Positions 2,017 to 58,666 of a stretch of DNA of 64,000 bases are shown here, piece after piece. Positions within the stretch are counted from its first letter, which is position 1. The number at the start of each line of letters is the position of its first letter. A program made the position numbers and the translations under genes. A model generated the notes under the pieces. It saw only the letters and a list, made by a program, of their open reading frames with translations. It was not told the DNA's origin and did not search any database. Source of the DNA: Lycium barbarum (lineage: Eukaryota > Streptophyta > Magnoliopsida > Solanales > Solanaceae); the NCBI RefSeq assembly GCF_019175385.1, contig NC_083348.1:44600950-44664949 (forward strand), given 5' to 3'.

Positions 2017-2028
2017 TGGTATCAGAGC
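2017..2028 (+). other. Primer-binding site of element B (initiator tRNA-Met)
   Basis: TGGTATCAGAGC lies 4 nt after the LTR end at 2012. This is the complement of the 3' end of plant initiator tRNA-Met, the usual primer site of many plant LTR retrotransposons. Confidence 0.92.
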
Positions 2029-2073
2029 AGTTCAGTCCTAGGAAATGTCTACGAGCCGTGTCTAGTAGAGTCT

Positions 2074-2108
2074 TGTTTATGGTGTGTTGCGCGCCACATC
2101 TATAAACA
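2074..2108 (+). other. Leader stem-loop of B with GCGCGC loop (candidate dimer initiation site)
   Basis: TGTTTAT GGTGTG pairs with CACATC T ATAAACA, leaving the 8-nt loop TTGCGCGC. The loop carries the palindrome GCGCGC at 2089-2094. Position, stem and loop size match the leader stem-loops of I, G, F and A. The function is inferred. Confidence 0.72.
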
Positions 2109-2581
2109 GGAGGCTATAGGGCATTTAGGAGGGTTACTCTTCTTTCATCTCTAAGATCGTGCGATAGTGCTAAGCCATAGGAAATGAGATTCCTTATACT
2201 AACCCCTGATTGCAGCAGAAGAATGGTAATGATAGAAGAAAGTGATAGATGACATTGAAAGCTACGGAGGTAAGCCCCTTAGTTGAGGCTACGTTATCGA
2301 AATATGTAATTATATGATGATAAATTGATTATCGTGAAAGTAAGTCAGTGCTCATATGATAGAAGAATTGTCCCTGTGAGGCATTGTTGGTATTTGCTGT
2401 GTGCAGGTTTTGAGATAGTAAGAAATATAGAGGAAACTCTGCCAAAATTTTCCTAGAATCTAAAGGAGATAAGATATAAGCTTGCAATATGTCCTAATGG
2501 GAAAATATGTTGTGCAAAAAGTAAAGGCAGGACGAGATTAAGTTAGGAGTATCATTGACGATTATAAGAGATGAGGTAAAT
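2109..2581 (+). mobile_element. Element B internal region, left part (non-coding)
   Basis: Untranslated leader and interior of B. It includes the conserved AGATCGTGCGATAG motif (about 2154-2167), also found after the leader hairpin of the other elements, and a stretch (about 2363-2450) resembling part of the interior of G (about 19655-19740) and of LTR H (about 35745-35840). No gag reading frame is recognisable. It ends at the TSD TAAAT (2577-2581) of solo LTR E. Confidence 0.7.
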
Positions 2582-14920: not shown

Positions 14921-14932
14921 TGGTATCAGAGC
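14921..14932 (+). other. Primer-binding site of element I
   Basis: TGGTATCAGAGC, 4 nt after the 5' LTR end at 14916; complementary to initiator tRNA-Met. Confidence 0.93.
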
Positions 14933-14975
14933 AGTTCGTCCTCGGAATGTCTACAGGCCGTGTCTCGTAGAGTCT

Positions 14976-15011
14976 TGTTTTTCGGTGTGTCGTGCACCAC
15001 ATCTATAAACA
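14976..15011 (+). other. Leader stem-loop of I with GTGCAC loop
   Basis: TGTTTTTCGGTGTG pairs with CACATCTATAAACA around the loop TCGTGCAC (palindrome GTGCAC at 14992-14997). One stem base is changed relative to the other elements (TGTTTTT for TGTTTAT). Confidence 0.72.
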
Positions 15012-15120
15012 GGAGGCTACAGGACATTTAGGGTATTACCTTTCTTTGAATCTTAGATCGTGCGATAGAGCTGTGCTATTAGGATGACTCTTTTCTGACC
15101 GGTTGTTGTGTTTTTCAGTG

Positions 15121-16260
15121 ATGCCTCCAAAGAAGGCAACGGCTGCCCAGAAGGGCAAGGCGGTGGTAGGAGAGACTAGTCAGGTGCAGAGAGTTACCCG
15201 GGCTCGTGCTCAGGATTTGCCCGATGTTGTGCCCCAGTCAGAGGGTTCTGCTACACCACCGGAGGAGCCAGGAGCAGGTCCATCATTAGCTCCAGACGCT
15301 CCAGCGCCCGAGCCTCCAGCTCCTCAGCCAGGGTGGAGGATAGGACATTGAGGGAGGCAGTACAGTTGTTGACGACTTTGGTGGTGGAACAGGCTCGCAG
15401 ACGCAGGCCGAGAGGTGATGATGATGATGACAGGCGTGATAGCCTCAGGGTTCGTGATTTTCTGACATGTAGTCCCCCATAGTTTTTCGGGTCTAAGCCC
15501 GATGAGGACCCCCACGACTTCATTCGGGGGATGAGGCGCTCATTGGGATTGGTCAGGGCTTCAGAGACCGAGTCCGTTGAGTTAGCCTCGCACAAATTAC
15601 GAGATGTTGCGGCTAATTGGTATGAGTCTTGGGAGCTGTCCAGAGGTGAGGGTGCTCCCCCAACTACATGGGACGAGTTTGTGGCCGCTTTTCTCTGCCA
15701 CTTTTTGTCCCCGGAGTTGCGGAGGGCGAGGGATGACATATTTTTGCAGCTGCGGTAGAGAGGTCGGAGTGTTCGTGAGTATAATTTGGAGTTTGATTCT
15801 TTGGCTCGATATGCACCTGCTATAGTAGCGGATATGGCCGACCGGATGCACCGGTACGTGATAGGGTTGGACCGCTACCTAGTTGACAGTTGTATGGCGA
15901 TGGCATCGCAGACTGATATGGACATCGCCCGGTTACAGGCCTACGCGCAGGGTATGGAGGACCGGCACAGAGAGGACCGATCGGGCAGAGATCGTGATAG
16001 GAGGCCGCCCAAGCGGGCTAGATCAGCAGGGTATTCTGGAGATTTTCGAGGCGGACAGCCTCAATCACAGCAGTTGGGCAGATATGCTCCTCCGTCCGAC
16101 TGGGGTACACAGTCCGCTGGTAGACGATTTGATGGTGCAGGACCGTCTGGGGCCGGTCAGAGTTCCAGAGCATCAGGTTCGCAGACGACCAGGGGTTCTA
16201 GCCAGTCCAGACCACCCAGGCCCCGTTGTTCTTATTGTGGGAGATCGCACCCAAGGGAGC
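15121..16260 (+). pseudogene. gag pseudogene of element I
   Basis: Gag would form the retrotransposon particle and bind its RNA. The ATG at 15121 opens MPPKKATAAQKGKAVVGE, the same N-terminus as gag of element A (MPRKKATAAQKGKG). The first frame is lost near 15345 and the protein continues in another frame through the retrotransposon-gag domain (about 15480-15790, with ANWYESWELSRGEG and FLSPELRRARDD) and a basic, S/G-rich tail to the start of a zinc knuckle (CSYCGRSHP at about 16228). In-frame stops lie at about 15481 (probably PPQFFG before) and 15757. The frame is cut at 16260 where LTR sequence is joined, so the second half of the knuckle is missing. Not functional. Confidence 0.88.
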
Positions 16261-19194: not shown

Positions 19195-19237
19195 GGTTTG
19201 TCCTCAGAATGTCTACAGGCCATGTCTCGTAGAGTCT

Positions 19238-19273
19238 TGTTTATCGGTGTGTTGTGCACCACATCTATAAACA
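19238..19273 (+). other. Leader stem-loop of G with GTGCAC loop
   Basis: TGTTTATCGGTGTG pairs with CACATCTATAAACA (one C/T mismatch, one G.U) around the loop TTGTGCAC; palindrome GTGCAC at 19254-19259. Confidence 0.74.
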
Positions 19274-20081
19274 GGAGGCTACAGGACATTTAGGGTGTTA
19301 CCTTTCTTTGGATCTTAGATCGTGCGATAATGCCGGCCGTAGGAAACAAATTCCTTTCTACTAACCCTTAATTTCAGTTGGAGAACGGCATTGACAAAAG
19401 ACAGTGATTGATGATATTGGAAGCTACACAGTATACAGGTAAGCAATGGTATGGAAGATGTATGTTGGGGAAGTCATTTGAAGTATGATTGAAATATAAA
19501 GTTGAAGATCGAAAAAGGAAAATAAACAGGAAAGTGTAACAGGTGCAGTTTGAGTTGGACATGGGAGGTAAGTCTCGACATCTTTATGCTTTTATTTGTA
19601 ATTATTAGCCCTGTGTGGCTATGATACGATATGATACGTATGTATATATATATGTTGGCCCTGTGAGGCATTGTTGGTATTTCTACGTGCAGGTGTTGGG
19701 ATAGTAAGAAGTACAGAGGAACCTCTGCCCAAATTTTTTCCAAAATTATAAAAAGGAAAATGGGATATAAGTTCTTAACATGTCTTGAAAGTCGATACCG
19801 ATAGAGTAAATCTATTATGTTAGATTAAAGTTTAAGAGATACCCTCCATGTCATTCGTAAGAAGCACCATCCTTATTTGGGAAATTTTTATTTCGAGAAA
19901 ACATATATGACCAGCAAATTCGTAATTCATTTAAACGGACCAAAATACGTTCCGACCACACTTTGCTTTAGAAAAGTCTATGTTGAAGGGCAAAAATGTC
20001 CAGCGATTAAGTTTCACCTTATTGGAAGAATACAAAGCGTATGACAAGCAGTCGGGAATTAAATGGTTCGCTCACGACTCA

Positions 20082-31997: not shown

Positions 31998-32494
31998 CTT
32001 CCTCGCATGACCTTTATTACATGTTCTGGAGCAAGTCGAGGTCTTACAAATTCCGAGACACTCTCGTAACACGTCCCTTCTTTTGCAATTACCATTTTAC
32101 CCTTTTCAATTCCCAGTTCTCACCTTTCATTCACTTGCATAATTATCTTTCGTCCTGGATTTCCAGAATCCCGATGGTAGCGATCACACCTTCGTCGCCA
32201 TGCAAAATCCATAACCTTTTTGAAACAACACATCCCACTTATTGCCTATTTACAGTATTTCCTTTCCATGCTTCCTCCTGTTAGGCGTACCCATTCTGAT
32301 AGAACCTCCTTTACCATTCTTACTGTTCAAAGTCTCTGTGACTTGTCATATCCTCACTCACCTTCTTCCGTCGATACTAGGCGGCTGCGGAAATCAACGA
32401 TTAGCATAAGGAATCTTATTTCCTATGACTTGGCTCTATCGCACGATCTAAGACAGAAAGAAGGTCAACAATTCCTAGATGCCCCGCAGCCTCC

Positions 32495-32530
32495 TGTTTA
32501 TGGATGTGGCCGGCTTCACACCCATAAACA
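32495..32530 (-). other. Leader stem-loop of F with GCCGGC loop
   Basis: On the minus strand TGTTTATGGGTGTG pairs over all 14 positions (one G.U) with CACATCCATAAACA around the loop AAGCCGGC. The palindrome GCCGGC is at 32509-32514. The G-C pair next to TGTTTAT replaces a mismatch seen in G and I. Confidence 0.74.
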
Positions 32531-32575
32531 GGACTCTACTGGACACGACTTTGCAGACAACCCCTAGGACGACCT

Positions 32576-44349: not shown

Positions 44350-44551
44350 CGTTGAAATCAGAACAAATCATTAGACGACGAACTTTTGACACATGGCTCT
44401 ATCGCACGATCTAAGAGAGAAGGAATGACAATGTCCTAAATGTCCTACAGCCTCTTGTTTATAAGTGTGGTGCACAACACACCCATAAACAAGACTCTAC
44501 TAGACACGGTCTGTAGACAACCTTAGGATGGAACTTCCCTGATACCATTTC
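44350..44551 (-). mobile_element. Element A leader with stem-loop and decayed primer-binding site
   Basis: Untranslated leader between LTR and gag. It includes the ATCGCACGAT motif (44401-44410, minus-strand ATCGTGCGAT), the leader stem-loop (44456-44491) and TGATACCA at 44540-44547, a partly mutated initiator-Met primer site (TGGTATCAGGGA instead of TGGTATCAGAGC). Confidence 0.82.
44456..44491 (-). other. Leader stem-loop of A with GTGCAC loop
   Basis: On the minus strand TGTTTATGGGTGTG pairs with CACACTTATAAACA (all 14 positions, two G.U) around the loop TTGTGCAC; palindrome at 44470-44475. Confidence 0.74.
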
Positions 44552-50558: not shown

Positions 50559-50980
50559 TGTTCATCGCTTGTTGTTATATGTCTTCAGATGTATCAATGA
50601 AAATGCAAAAATAGAAAAAGAAGAGAATATTTCACTTCCCAATTAAACAGAAGATCATTATTAACTTTTATAAATTACATGAAATAGAACTTCTTAGTTA
50701 TGATTGGAGTAATCACTAAGCAAAAATCACTAATTAAGAATCATTTTTTTTGAAGAAAAAAATAATTAGTTTTCTGAAACTTACCTAGAATCTTTCCAGA
50801 AAGACGTCTTCTTTAACTTCTGAACATTAAAAGTAGCACTTAAAGTCGAAGGATAAAATGGTTACTTAGTTTTTAAAGGATAAATTAGTAATTCAACTTT
50901 TGAGTTGGGATGTTCCCACTTTTACTCCTTTTGGTTGTAGTACTAATATATTTCTTATATATTTTTCCCGATTCAAGATT

Positions 50981-53900
50981 ATGGCACCTAATAAGGAATG
51001 GATGCAACTTGTTCAAGATCGAGTTGATAATGCTTACATACTTGGGGTGGAGACATTTTTGGATTATGCTTTTACAAGATTGAGAGAAACGCAAGAAATA
51101 CGTTGTCCATGTGTCAAATGTTGTAATGCATCTTCAAGAACTCGTAAGATGGTTAGGTCACATTTAATAGTATATGGAATAATCGAAAGTTATACTTTTT
51201 GGTATCATCACGGGGAGAGGTTAGGTGAGCCGCAGTCAGATTCTGAATTTGTGGACGATAATGACATTGAAAAGGATGATGATGAGGATGAGGATGAGGA
51301 TGAGGATGAAATACCTGAGATCTTAAGGGATTTATACCCCGCTTTCAATGGAGATAATATGAACACCGGTAGTGATGATTTTGTTGAGGAGGAACCAAAT
51401 CCTGAAGCAAAACGATTCTATAGCCTGTTAAAGGATTTTGAGCAACCATTATACGAATGTTCAAAAGCTTCTAAACTTTCTGCTATGGTTAAATTGCTTC
51501 ATATTAAAAGTATTGGTCATTGGAGTAATGCATCATTTACAATGTTGTTGAAGATGTTGAAGGAAGATTTATTACCTGATGGATCAAACTTGCCAGGTTC
51601 ATATTACGAGGCAAAGAAGATAATTCGGGACCTTGGTCTTTCTTACAAGAAGATTGATGCGTGTAAGAATAATTGCATGTTATATTGGAAGGATGATAAA
51701 TTTCTTGAGTCTTGCAAAGTTTGCGGCGCATCTAGATGGAAGGAGGATAAACGTAACGGGGAAACAAAATCTAAATGTGGGAAAAAGATACCATGCAAGA
51801 TTTTACGTTATTTTCCTCTAATGCCCAGACTTCAAAGATTGTTTATGTCCTCGAAAACAACTTCTTTGATGAGATGGAATTTTGATGAAAGAGTTGATGA
51901 TGGAATAATGAGGCACCCGGCTGATTCGGTAGCATGGAAGACACTTGATGAACTTCACCCATCTTTTGCCACCGAGCCTCGTAATGTTCGACTTGGACTT
52001 GCTAGTGATGGTTTTCAACCATTTAAAAGTTCCAAAACTCCGTATAGCATTTGGCCTGTGGTACTTATTCCTTATAATTTACCACCTTGGTTATGCATGA
52101 AGCAAGAGAATTTTATTTTATCGATGCTTATTCCTGGTCCTGAAAGTCCCGGAGATGCAATTGATGTTTATCTCCAACCTTTGATAGAGGAATTGAAGGA
52201 ATTATGGGAAACTGGAGTTGAGACCTTTGATACGTCAACTAGACAGAATTTTATGTTACATGCAGCTTTGTTATGGACCATTAATGACTTTCCAGCATAT
52301 GCAAATTTTTCGGGATGGAGTACCAAAGGAAAATTGGCTTACCCATGTTACAATAAAGAAACTCTTTCAATTAGGTTGGAAAATGGTAAAAAGCAGTGTT
52401 ATATGCGCCATAGACGCTTTCTTCCTCTTAATCACAATTGGCGGAATGATAAAGATTCATTTGATGGCACTAAGGAGCGGAAAAAACCACCAAAAATTCT
52501 ATCTGGTAATGACATACTTGATCAAGTGGCTGATTTAGATGGGATAACACTATCAAAAGATCCAAAGAAGAAGACCAAAATATCACATGATAGTAGGGGT
52601 GATAATTGGAATAAGAAGAGTATTTTCTTTGATCTTCCATATTGGAAAACATTACTGTTGCGACATAATTTAGATGTGATGCACATTGAGAAAATTATAT
52701 GTGATAATATTTTGGGGACAATCTTAAATGTGAATGGAAAAACCAAAGATACATTGAATTCTCGGATGGATTTGCAAGCAATGAACATAAAGAAAGAATT
52801 GCATCCGATAAAAAGGGGGGATAAATATGAGTTACCAACTGCATGTTACACATTGTCTCCTGAAGAAAAGCATAAGTTTTTCACTTTCTTAAAGAATTTA
52901 CAGGTCCCAGATGGATTTTCATCAAATATTTCTCAATGTGTCAACCTGAAAGATCGCAAACTTTCAGGCTTGAAAAGTCATGATTGTCATGTTATTCTAC
53001 AACATTTACTCCCACTTGCGATACGCGGTATGCTCTGCAAATCTGTGCTTGAACCACTTATTGAGTTGTCTATATTTTTCAACATGCTTGGAGCGAAATG
53101 CTTAAGAGTAGATGAGCTAGAGCAAATAGAAGCCCAAATTCCTATAACTCTGTGCAAGTTAGAAAAGGTCTTCATTCCTGCATTTTTTGATATCATGGTC
53201 CACTTGCCAATTCATTTAGCAAATGAAGCTAAGATTGCGGGACCTATTCAATATCGATGGATGTATCCAGTGGAGCGATGGCTATACTTTTTGAAGTCTT
53301 TTATTCGTAATAGGGCTTGCCCAGAAGGCTCCATTGCAGAGGGATATTTAGCAACTGAATGTATGACCTTATGTTCAAGGTATTTGCATACGATGGAAAC
53401 AAAATTTAATCGCAATGAACGGAATTATGATGGTGGTGCTATTGAATCTGATGGAGGTTTAGCAGTTTTTTCTCACCCTGGAAAATTTTTAGGCAGTGTC
53501 GACATAGCGGGCGTTCTTGATTCACCAGAATTTGAGCAGGCACATTTTTATATTTTGAAGAACTGTGATGAAATTCAACCATTTCTCGAGTATGTAATGA
53601 CTCATTCAAATAATTTACTTTTACCTTTTCCATATTTTCTTACTAAAACTGACATGTTATACTTCAAATTCTTTGCAGAGAATTTTCACAAATTCCAGTT
53701 GATACGTCTAAAAACAATTCAGATATCGAATGGAATAGACAATTCGTTAGTTGGTTAAAAATAAAGGTGAGCAATTATGAATTTTTGTTTTTCAAACCGA
53801 TTTGTGAATAGTAGTAGCTAAACTATGTACTTTATTGTGATAGGTTGAGGAATTGCACAAACACGATGATAGTAAGAAAATAAAAGATTTGCACTCATTG

Positions 53901-54374
53901 TCACGTGGTCCTCTGCCATATGTGACAAGTTTCAAAGGCTATGTTACTAATGGATATAGGTTTCACGTGAAAGACCATGATATAGGTTTGAGAACTCAAA
54001 ATTGCGGGGTGGTTGTAGTTGGTGAAACTGATGAAGAGAATAAAAATATTGATTACTACGGAGAGTTAACTGAGATTCTGGAATTACAATTTACTGGGGG
54101 AAGAAGAGTGGTGTTGTTTCGATGTTTGTGGTTTGATGTGTTTGACCAAGAAAGGGGAATTAAAGTAGATAAATATGGCTTCGTAAGTGTTAACCGCCAA
54201 CGGTTTTTGAAAATAAATGAGCCTTTTGTATTAGCAAACCAAGCATCACAGGTATTCTATGCTAACGATCTTTCGAATAAAGGCTGGCATGTTGTACGAA
54301 AGGTTCAACCTCGTGATTCTTTTGATGTTGGGGAAAAAGAGGAAGATGATTTAGAGGAGCTACCAGGAATCTAG
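50981..54374 (+). CDS. TNP2-type CACTA transposase (three exons, ~1075 aa)
   Basis: This enzyme should cut and join the element ends. I place the start at ATG 50981 (MAPNKEWMQL), preceded by an acceptor-like TTCAAG, rather than the in-frame upstream ATG at 50900. Exons are 50981-53589, 53679-53766 and 53844-54374. The introns begin GTATGT and GTGAGC and end GCAG and ATAG, and the lengths keep frame; without splicing the frame would stop at 53758. Domains in order are a Transpos_assoc-like N-terminus with cysteines (RCPCVKCCNA, about residues 47-56), an acidic linker, Transposase_21 with GLASDGFQPF (Asp 343), NDFPAYANFSGW (Asp 436) and LDVMHIEK (Asp 565, Glu 570), a DUF4218-like region, and a DUF4216-like C-terminus in exon 3 (LFRCLWFDV). 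The family is certain; the catalytic assignments follow the conserved family positions. No internal stop is seen. Confidence 0.93.
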
Positions 54375-57761: not shown

Positions 57762-58666
57762 TTAGCCTCTCTGGTGAACCTCATCCTTGAAAAGCCATTC
57801 TTTTAAAGATCCATTTTCCATGAACTCAAAAACAAGATAGGATAGTTGATGATGCTTACATACACCAGTGAGGCTGATTAAATTGAAATGATTGATATTT
57901 GCATGGAATTTATCCTCTTTAGATATATCTGTCCTCATCTCCTTGATGGCCAGCAGTTTTCCTCTAAGGACCCCTTTATAAACATAATTACTAAGTCTTC
58001 TTCGCGAGCTGAAGTTTTCAGTTACAGCCACCAGTTCTTCAAATTAATAGACTTTAATCAGTTGATCCATACTAACTATATTTTCCAGGAAATGTTCTGG
58101 TAAATTCCAGTTTTGTTTCCCTTCTCTTCCTTTCCCAAGCACTTCACATCTTTCGTTCTCCTTTTTGTGTTTTAAGACAATGAACCAGGTAAAACAGAGG
58201 ACTGCAAGGGAAACACCAATTCCTACCCCAATAAAAAGACTGATGTATGATATTTTGTGCTTAGAAGGGTAAAAGATTTCAGTCTGTGCTCTCTTAATAG
58301 TCCTTGTTTGGAAGCTTGAAGGTTCTTTTGGTAGAGGAATCAATATAGTTGTGAACGGATTAAGAACTGAATTTTCAGATAATCCATTTGCATATGCTGT
58401 ACTTTGACTATTGACACTGAACTGCGCGCTAATGGTAGAAACGTTGCCCCCCCAAGTAACCAAATAAGTTACCAGATATTTCACACCATTTCTTGTTTGA
58501 TCCCTTATAGGACAGGCACATCTGAGTGGTACCCGCAAATTTAGACCCAGAACCAGATCCATTGAGTTGATATCTATAGGCCCTTTATGATCCCCGGATC
58601 TGCCTTGATGCAGGGGTATAATTTCTCTTAACTGTGCACATTCAGCGTACTTGTAGGAGCAGGCCT
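57762..58666 (-). pseudogene. LysM receptor-like kinase fragment (LYK4/LYK5-like) captured in CACTA
   Basis: LYK4/5 proteins are plasma-membrane co-receptors for chitin or related glycans in plant immunity. On the minus strand one frame runs from about 58666 to 57762 with a single in-frame TAA at about 58044, after MDQLIKVY. It gives LRVPLRCACP and KYLVTYLVTWGGNVSTISAQ (LysM region), PFTTILIPLP, a transmembrane segment (ISLFIGVGIGVSLAVLCF), a juxtamembrane basic stretch, and the kinase N-lobe with AIKEM (the ATP-binding Lys), NHFNLISLTGVC and YLVFEFMENGSLKEWL (hinge). The rest of the kinase, including the HRD and DFG motifs, is absent, as are the signal peptide and the first LysM units. No start fits. 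It lies antisense to the transposase genes. A transduplicated host fragment is the best reading. Confidence 0.87.

What the first reader, a model, noticed from the sequence alone, without database searches (positions are those of the whole stretch)
2074..2108. Kissing-loop-like dimer initiation site in the leader of five plant LTR retrotransposons
Directly seen: the leaders of B (2074-2108), I (14976-15011), G (19238-19273), F (32495-32530, minus) and A (44456-44491, minus) all carry a stem of about 14 positions, about 45 nt after the primer-binding site, with an 8-nt loop. The last six loop bases are always a self-complementary palindrome, but not the same one: GCGCGC in B, GTGCAC in I, G and A, GCCGGC in F. 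Stem positions also covary, for example G-C in F where G and I have C/T. HIV-1 dimer initiation loops use GCGCGC or GUGCAC, so the resemblance is striking. Conservation of the palindrome property rather than the sequence is what loop-loop RNA dimerisation predicts. The function is inference.
Basis: partly seen in the sequence, partly recalled or inferred. Interest (0 to 1): 0.92.

Follow-up and report, generated by a model that had tools for sequence, protein, structure and literature searches.

The report
Palindromic kissing-loop hairpin in plant retrotransposons
Plant Ty3-type jumping genes carry, just after the site where their copying starts, an RNA hairpin whose loop can in most copies pair with another copy of itself even though its letters differ between families, which is what a signal for joining two RNA genomes should look like.

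Summary
All five leaders carry the hairpin with an 8-nt loop whose last six bases are palindromic. Genome-wide, 21,418 places match flanking motifs chosen without regard to the hairpin. Of the 100 listed, 86 loops are exact palindromes; shuffled loop halves give 45.6 on average and at most 61. Divergent families carry three further palindromes at the same place, GGCGCC, GAGCTC and GACGTC, making six; the middle pair takes all four Watson-Crick forms. The two central, adjacent bases are the most strongly covarying of 1,176 column pairs. Adjacent bases cannot pair within one strand, so the constraint must act between two molecules. The hairpin is the tip of a longer conserved stem with an AG/GG internal loop, 43-45 nt after the primer-binding site and, in elements that have one, upstream of a gag ORF, mostly with a zinc knuckle. 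Best reading: a dimer initiation site, like those of HIV-1 and yeast Ty3. Dimerisation itself is inferred.

The parts
2074..2108 (+). Element B: apical hairpin, loop TTGCGCGC (palindrome GCGCGC)
2058..2124 (+). Element B: whole stem with lower helix and AG/GG internal loop
   Evidence: fold; pair counts on related leaders
2017..2028 (+). Element B: primer-binding site TGGTATCAGAGC
   Evidence: match to tRNA-iMet recalled, not tested
14976..15011 (+). Element I: apical hairpin, loop TCGTGCAC (palindrome GTGCAC)
14960..15027 (+). Element I: whole stem with AG/GG internal loop
14921..14932 (+). Element I: primer-binding site
19238..19273 (+). Element G: apical hairpin, loop TTGTGCAC (palindrome GTGCAC)
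19222..19289 (+). Element G: whole stem with AG/GG internal loop
19183..19194 (+). Element G: primer-binding site
32495..32530 (-). Element F: apical hairpin, loop AAGCCGGC (palindrome GCCGGC)
32479..32546 (-). Element F: whole stem with AG/GG internal loop
32576..32587 (-). Element F: primer-binding site
44456..44491 (-). Element A: apical hairpin, loop TTGTGCAC (palindrome GTGCAC)
44440..44507 (-). Element A: whole stem (lower helix weaker in this copy)
44536..44547 (-). Element A: primer-binding site (TGGTATCAGGGA, two differences from the others)

Best explanation
It is an RNA element of Ty3-type plant LTR retrotransposons: a long irregular hairpin, 43-45 nt after the primer-binding site in the window, whose 8-nt loop ends in a six-base self-complementary sequence. 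Two copies of the genomic RNA meet by loop-loop (kissing) pairing of this palindrome; the zinc-knuckle part of Gag then probably helps them to form a stable dimer that is packaged and reverse-transcribed. Shown here: the structure, its conservation, and a constraint for self-complementarity rather than for one sequence. Inferred: RNA-RNA dimerisation, the role of Gag, packaging.
For: Leaders picked by flanking motifs only: 86 of the 100 listed (of 21,418) have exact palindromes. Leaders picked by a changed stem pair, loop free: 66 of the 100 listed (of 308), with GTGCAC 25, GGCGCC 18, GCGCGC 13, GACGTC 4, GAGCTC 3, GCCGGC 1, GCATGC 1, TTATAA 1 (the TTATAA place was not examined and resembles L081, which is not a leader). 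Shuffling loop halves gives 45.6 (at most 61) and 18.5 (at most 33) for these two samples. Loops restricted to GRSSYC: 97 of 100 listed (of 101) and 48 of 51 distinct hairpins palindromic, where 4 of 16 letter combinations are. Pair counts on 35 leaders: 95.0% of cells paired (shuffled 90.3%, slid at most 54.9%), covariation 0.270 against at most 0.103 when slid and 0.179 when shuffled. The adjacent central bases rank first of 1,176 column pairs and the middle pair seventh. The first six loop bases are palindromic in 0 of 300, the middle six in 4 of 300. Gag: Retrotrans_gag in 7 of 7 ORFs tested, zf-CCHC in 6 of 7. Gag identity between bearers falls to about 43-50%, and to about 35% over some 90-120 residues for the GGCGCC and GACCTC copies.
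Against: Dimerisation not observed. 14, 37 and 34 of 100 loops in the three samples not selected on the loop are not palindromes; 12, 32 and 22 of these are one step from a family palindrome, as decay would give. GTGAAC recurs in 3 of the 100 rows (read on the antisense strand), possibly a small non-palindromic subfamily. The outermost palindrome pair is nearly invariant G-C and gives no covariation (rank 201). The count of pairs changed on both sides is 8, but one slid version reaches 9 and 9 of 500 shuffles reach 8. GCGCGC to GTGCAC alone could arise from CpG decay. Samples were partly chosen by pattern, listings show only the first 100 places, and copies are related.
Confidence: 0.86

Rival explanations
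1. The palindrome is a DNA site for a two-fold symmetric protein such as a transcription factor, acting just downstream of the LTR promoter.
For: Self-complementarity is also what a dimeric DNA-binding protein needs; GACGTC resembles a bZIP site (recalled).
Against: Six unrelated palindromes at one position do not fit one sequence-specific protein, and the flanking stem shows compensatory changes.
Confidence: 0.06
2. No selection for self-complementarity: one ancestral palindrome was inherited, and variants come from CpG decay.
For: GCGCGC contains two CpGs; decay of both can give GTGCAC or GCATGC. 81 of the 100 listed leaders carry one of two palindromes, GTGCAC or GCGCGC.
Against: GCCGGC, GGCGCC, GAGCTC and GACGTC need transversions at both partners. 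GAGCTC occurs in 21 distinct hairpins and GACGTC in 7, so they are not single accidents.
Confidence: 0.03
3. The hairpin is kept for another job (Gag binding, control of translation or splicing) and the loop pairs with a second site in the same RNA.
For: It lies between the PBS and gag, where packaging and translation signals sit, and parts of the lower stem and the AG/GG internal loop are among the most conserved columns.
Against: A loop pairing in cis would be complementary to the distant site, with no need to be self-complementary. No search for such a partner was made.
Confidence: 0.05

Closest known systems
HIV-1 dimer initiation site, stem-loop SL1
   Same: Hairpin in the 5' leader; palindrome in the apical loop; an internal loop (loop B) below it; kissing interaction (passages of PMC516450).
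   Different: Loop is 8 nt with two 5' bases of varied type (TT, AA, TA, TC, TG, CA, AT, AC) and none 3' of the palindrome; internal loop is 2x2 AG/GG where HIV-1 has a 1x3 loop (title in the reference list); no Rfam match.
Yeast Ty3 PAL6 dimerisation site (PMC11381356, passages read)
   Same: Ty3-type retrotransposon; six-base palindrome (CUGCAG) in the apical part of a short hairpin near the 5' end; proposed kissing-loop dimer.
   Different: PAL6 lies at nt 391-396, by its number among the three palindromes the authors place in the GAG ORF; one element, one sequence. Here the site is in the leader before gag, with six palindromes across families.
Yeast Ty1 kissing loops (PMC5454406, abstract and outline)
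   Same: Kissing-loop start of retrotransposon RNA dimers.
   Different: Two hairpins with complementary 7-nt motifs nested in a pseudoknot, rather than one self-complementary loop.
Barley BARE2 dimerisation and packaging signals (PMC3735527, passages read)
   Same: A plant LTR retrotransposon for which conserved dimerisation and packaging signals are stated, with a gag-defective member packaged by its partner.
   Different: Copia-type rather than Ty3-type (recalled). The words 'kissing' and 'palindrom' occur 0 times in that text, and the passages seen give no structure; the source paper for the signals was not seen.

Membership tests
Retroelement dimer initiation site (kissing loop) | Stem-loop in the 5' leader, near the PBS and upstream of gag | tested here: met
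   three of five window elements (B, G, F) show no gag match within 1.5 kb downstream
Retroelement dimer initiation site (kissing loop) | Self-complementary apical loop | tested here: met
   5 of 5 in the window; 86 of 100 listed leaders
Retroelement dimer initiation site (kissing loop) | Self-complementarity kept while the sequence changes | tested here: met
   six palindromes; covariation
Retroelement dimer initiation site (kissing loop) | Element encodes a nucleocapsid-type RNA-binding domain | tested here: met
   zf-CCHC at E <= 0.001 in 6 of 7 gag ORFs; chaperone activity itself not tested
Retroelement dimer initiation site (kissing loop) | RNA dimerises through the loop | not testable with these tools
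   needs in vitro transcripts
HIV-1-type SL1 | Purines on both sides of the palindrome in a 9-nt loop (flanking purines; loop size recalled) | tested here: not met
   8-nt loop, TT before the palindrome in 77 of 100 and AA in 13, nothing after it
HIV-1-type SL1 | Purine-rich internal loop below the upper stem | tested here: met
   AG/GG; of columns 17, 18, 61 and 62 of A1, 17, 18 and 62 are invariant and 61 is nearly so
Any Rfam 15 family | Match at gathering score | tested here: not met
   0 in 64 kb; 1 chance-level hit in 601 bases around B, not at the hairpin
Ty3-type LTR retrotransposon | Ty3-type Gag | tested here: met
   Ty3_capsid matched in 7 of 7, above its curated cut-off in 5 of 7; Retrotrans_gag above cut-off in 7 of 7
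Ty3-type LTR retrotransposon | Reverse transcriptase and integrase in Ty3 order | tested here: inconclusive
   downstream of gag on the element's strand, L092 has a single open stretch of 75 aa or more (77 aa, no Pfam match) and L093 none of 120 aa or more; only these two places were looked at

The most novel reading that the evidence does not exclude
The loop palindromes form a set of compatibility codes: at least six dimerisation classes coexist in one genome, each pairing best with itself, so that the loop decides which element RNAs are packaged together and recombine; gag-less elements are mobilised by keeping the code of a gag-bearing family.
Probability: 0.3. Interest if true: 0.87.

Novelty: new variant of a known kind. 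Interest (0 to 1): 0.74.

Why it matters
How plant LTR retrotransposons, which can make up most of a plant genome, pair and package their RNA is little known. Here more than twenty thousand matching leaders in one genome act as a mutational record: they point to selection for a loop that pairs with itself, name the bases, and supply natural loops of six specificities for direct tests of dimerisation, co-packaging, recombination between families and mobilisation of gag-less elements. It would also extend the retroviral and yeast kissing-loop theme to plant Ty3-type elements.

Tried and rejected
Scan of the window for palindromic-loop hairpins without masking: swamped by TA repeats, redone with a complexity filter. 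A pattern for changes at the outer loop pair caught nearly only antisense copies, because the hairpin is close to its own reverse complement; used only for anecdotes. Rfam: no match. Viral contigs: no match to the leader pattern. Of 20 ORFs or open stretches of the window searched with Pfam none gave a retrotransposon domain. A gag tree included several ORFs that are probably not gag (L028, L034, L036, L077) and 11 open forks of 25, so it is not used for counts. Palindromes TTATAA and CTATAG in the stem (16 of 34 rows at column 49) and CTGCAG and CTATAG at column 63 (10 of 35) lie in the paired arms and are taken as by-products of the stem; this was not tested further. A loop pattern for GTCGAC, patterns for single changes at each loop position, one for the outer loop pair in sense orientation, and one for a free loop with a changed stem pair 10/37 did not complete.

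Literature: searches were answered and their listings showed no description of this hairpin; some searches failed. Seen: passages of PMC3735527, PMC12786077, PMC4974528, PMC11381356, PMC516450 and PMC1950507, and abstract and outline of PMC5454406. So 'not found in print' rests on seven listings of open-licence papers and these passages only.

Full report
What is there. Folding 170-nt leaders from the PBS puts the hairpin at the tip of a longer stem in all five: a lower helix (GTGTCY with RGGACAY), a one-base mismatch, four pairs (GTAG with CTRY), an AG/GG internal loop, then the upper stem of up to 17 pairs; the lower part is weaker in A.

How common. The pattern PBS, 108-138 bases, AGATCGTGCGATA does not mention the hairpin. 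It matches 21,418 places in the 1.67 Gb genome, and its reversed control none. The first 100 places are listed: GTGCAC 60, GCGCGC 21, GCCGGC 5, and 14 others. A second pattern fixing part of the 5' arm, chosen to leave out the commonest form, has 5,274 matches; its first 100 give GCGCGC 34, GCCGGC 19, GTGCAC 10, and 37 others. Most of the others are one step from a family palindrome (12 of 14 and 32 of 37), as decay of old copies would give.

The key test. A third pattern asked for leaders in which one stem pair had changed from G-C to A-T, leaving the loop free. It has 308 matches and no control match. Of the first 100, 66 loops are exact palindromes, and new words appear: GGCGCC 18, GACGTC 4, GAGCTC 3. 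Of 12 loci fetched, 11 have a PBS-like sequence before the hairpin and one (L081) does not look like a leader; the GGCGCC copies L074 and L084, the GACCTC copy L076 and the GACGTT copy L080 have a PBS-like sequence, the hairpin and the internal loop. Intact GACGTC and GAGCTC loops in the same setting are in L085-L090. A fourth pattern limited the loop to GRSSYC, in which 4 of 16 letter combinations are palindromes: 101 matches, 100 listed, 97 palindromic (GGCGCC 66, GAGCTC 23, GACGTC 8); over distinct hairpins, 48 of 51. The binomial P treats related copies as independent and should not be quoted as a probability.

Why this means pairing between two molecules. In the 35-leader alignment the middle pair of the palindrome is UA 15, CG 14, AU 2, GC 2, UG 1, other 1, and the central pair GC 28, CG 6, other 1. 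The two central bases are neighbours and cannot pair with each other in one strand. Yet they are the top covarying pair of 1,176 column pairs in 187 distinct hairpins, with the middle pair seventh. That set mixes rows; one search was selected on stem pair 17-30 (second in rank, so not evidence) and on loop letters, though neither pattern forces complementarity in the loop. The outer loop pair is almost always G-C and says nothing. Independent of sampling, six palindromes carried by families need at least five changes from one palindrome to another, each altering both partners; only GCGCGC to GTGCAC is explained by CpG decay.

Stem. Compensatory changes occur: columns 24-55 UA 29 and GC 4; 26-53 UA 31 with CG 2, GC 1 and GU 1; 33-46 GC 24 and AU 11, but 10 of those 11 AU rows came from the pattern that selected that pair, the eleventh being L013. 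The structure as a whole pairs 95.0% of cells against 90.3% when shuffled and at most 54.9% when slid, and its covariation score is 0.270 against 0.179 and at most 0.103. One measure is less clear: 8 pairs change on both sides, while a version slid by one column reaches 9.

Elements. ORFs downstream of the hairpin carry Retrotrans_gag (7 of 7), Ty3_capsid (7 of 7 matched, 5 above its cut-off) and zf-CCHC (6 of 7). Gag identity between bearers falls to about 43-50% (16 ORFs), and to about 35% over some 90-120 residues for L084 (GGCGCC) and L076 (GACCTC), so the hairpin is better conserved than the protein. In the window, I and A have gag-like sequence within 1.5 kb of the hairpin; B, G and F do not (where the query set included some ORFs not checked by Pfam). 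No pol was found in two 4.7-kb stretches downstream of gag.

Mechanism. The most likely function is dimer initiation. The position between PBS and gag, the palindrome at the tip, the purine internal loop and the zinc-knuckle Gag all match retroviral practice. Closest relatives are HIV-1 SL1, yeast Ty3 PAL6 and Ty1 kissing loops. For plants, only a statement of conserved dimerisation and packaging signals in BARE2 was seen. Nearest-neighbour energies make each of the six words pair best with itself, although GCGCGC with GGCGCC (-7.5), GCGCGC with GTGCAC (-6.6) and GCCGGC with GGCGCC (-6.0) are not negligible. So separate dimer classes are possible but not shown. Gag-like sequence follows 21 of 28 GTGCAC, 6 of 20 GCGCGC and 2 of 2 GGCGCC leaders; 0 of 3 GCCGGC rows (two of them the same place), 0 of 3 GACGTC and 0 of 3 GAGCTC, though one-step variants GCCGGT (L061) and GACCTC (L076) have it. 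The compatibility-code idea is thus unsupported for GACGTC.

Scores. That the loop is kept self-complementary between molecules: about 0.95. That the job is genomic RNA dimerisation: about 0.86. The kind is known; the setting, loop geometry and coexistence of six specificities in one genome are new as far as the seven answered literature searches show.

Noticed in passing
window 2154, 15055, 19317 (+), 44412, 32449 (-): A 13-base motif AGATCGTGCGATA follows the hairpin by about 45 nt in all five leaders and is half of the pattern with 21,418 genomic matches; it is altered in several divergent families. Function unknown.
   Followed up: partly
window 50900-54374 (+): A 952-aa ORF with Transposase_21, DUF4218 and Transpos_assoc, followed by a DUF4216 ORF: looks like a CACTA-type DNA transposon with an open frame (type recalled).
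   Followed up: no
window 58044-58562 (-): ORF with a LYK4/5 LysM3 domain, probably an exon of a LysM receptor-like kinase gene of the host.
   Followed up: no
window 14921-16260 (+): Element I has a gag-like sequence in an internal region of only about 1.3 kb between its repeats: apparently a gag-only element.
   Followed up: partly
G000 C1:25236271-25264397: Six leader copies in series at spacings of about 5.2-5.7 kb, five with GCCGGC and one with TCCGGC loops, as if elements were arranged in tandem.
   Followed up: no
G000 C4:132211254-132285308: Five GGCGCC leader copies clustered within 75 kb at irregular spacing.
   Followed up: no
G000 C1:12753575, 40848197, 42208372: Three copies with the non-palindromic loop GTGAAC, perhaps a small subfamily.
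   Followed up: no
G000 C7:22123417-22123465: One copy with the main-family stem (TGTG/CACA) but loop TTGAGCTC, possibly an independent origin of GAGCTC.
   Followed up: no
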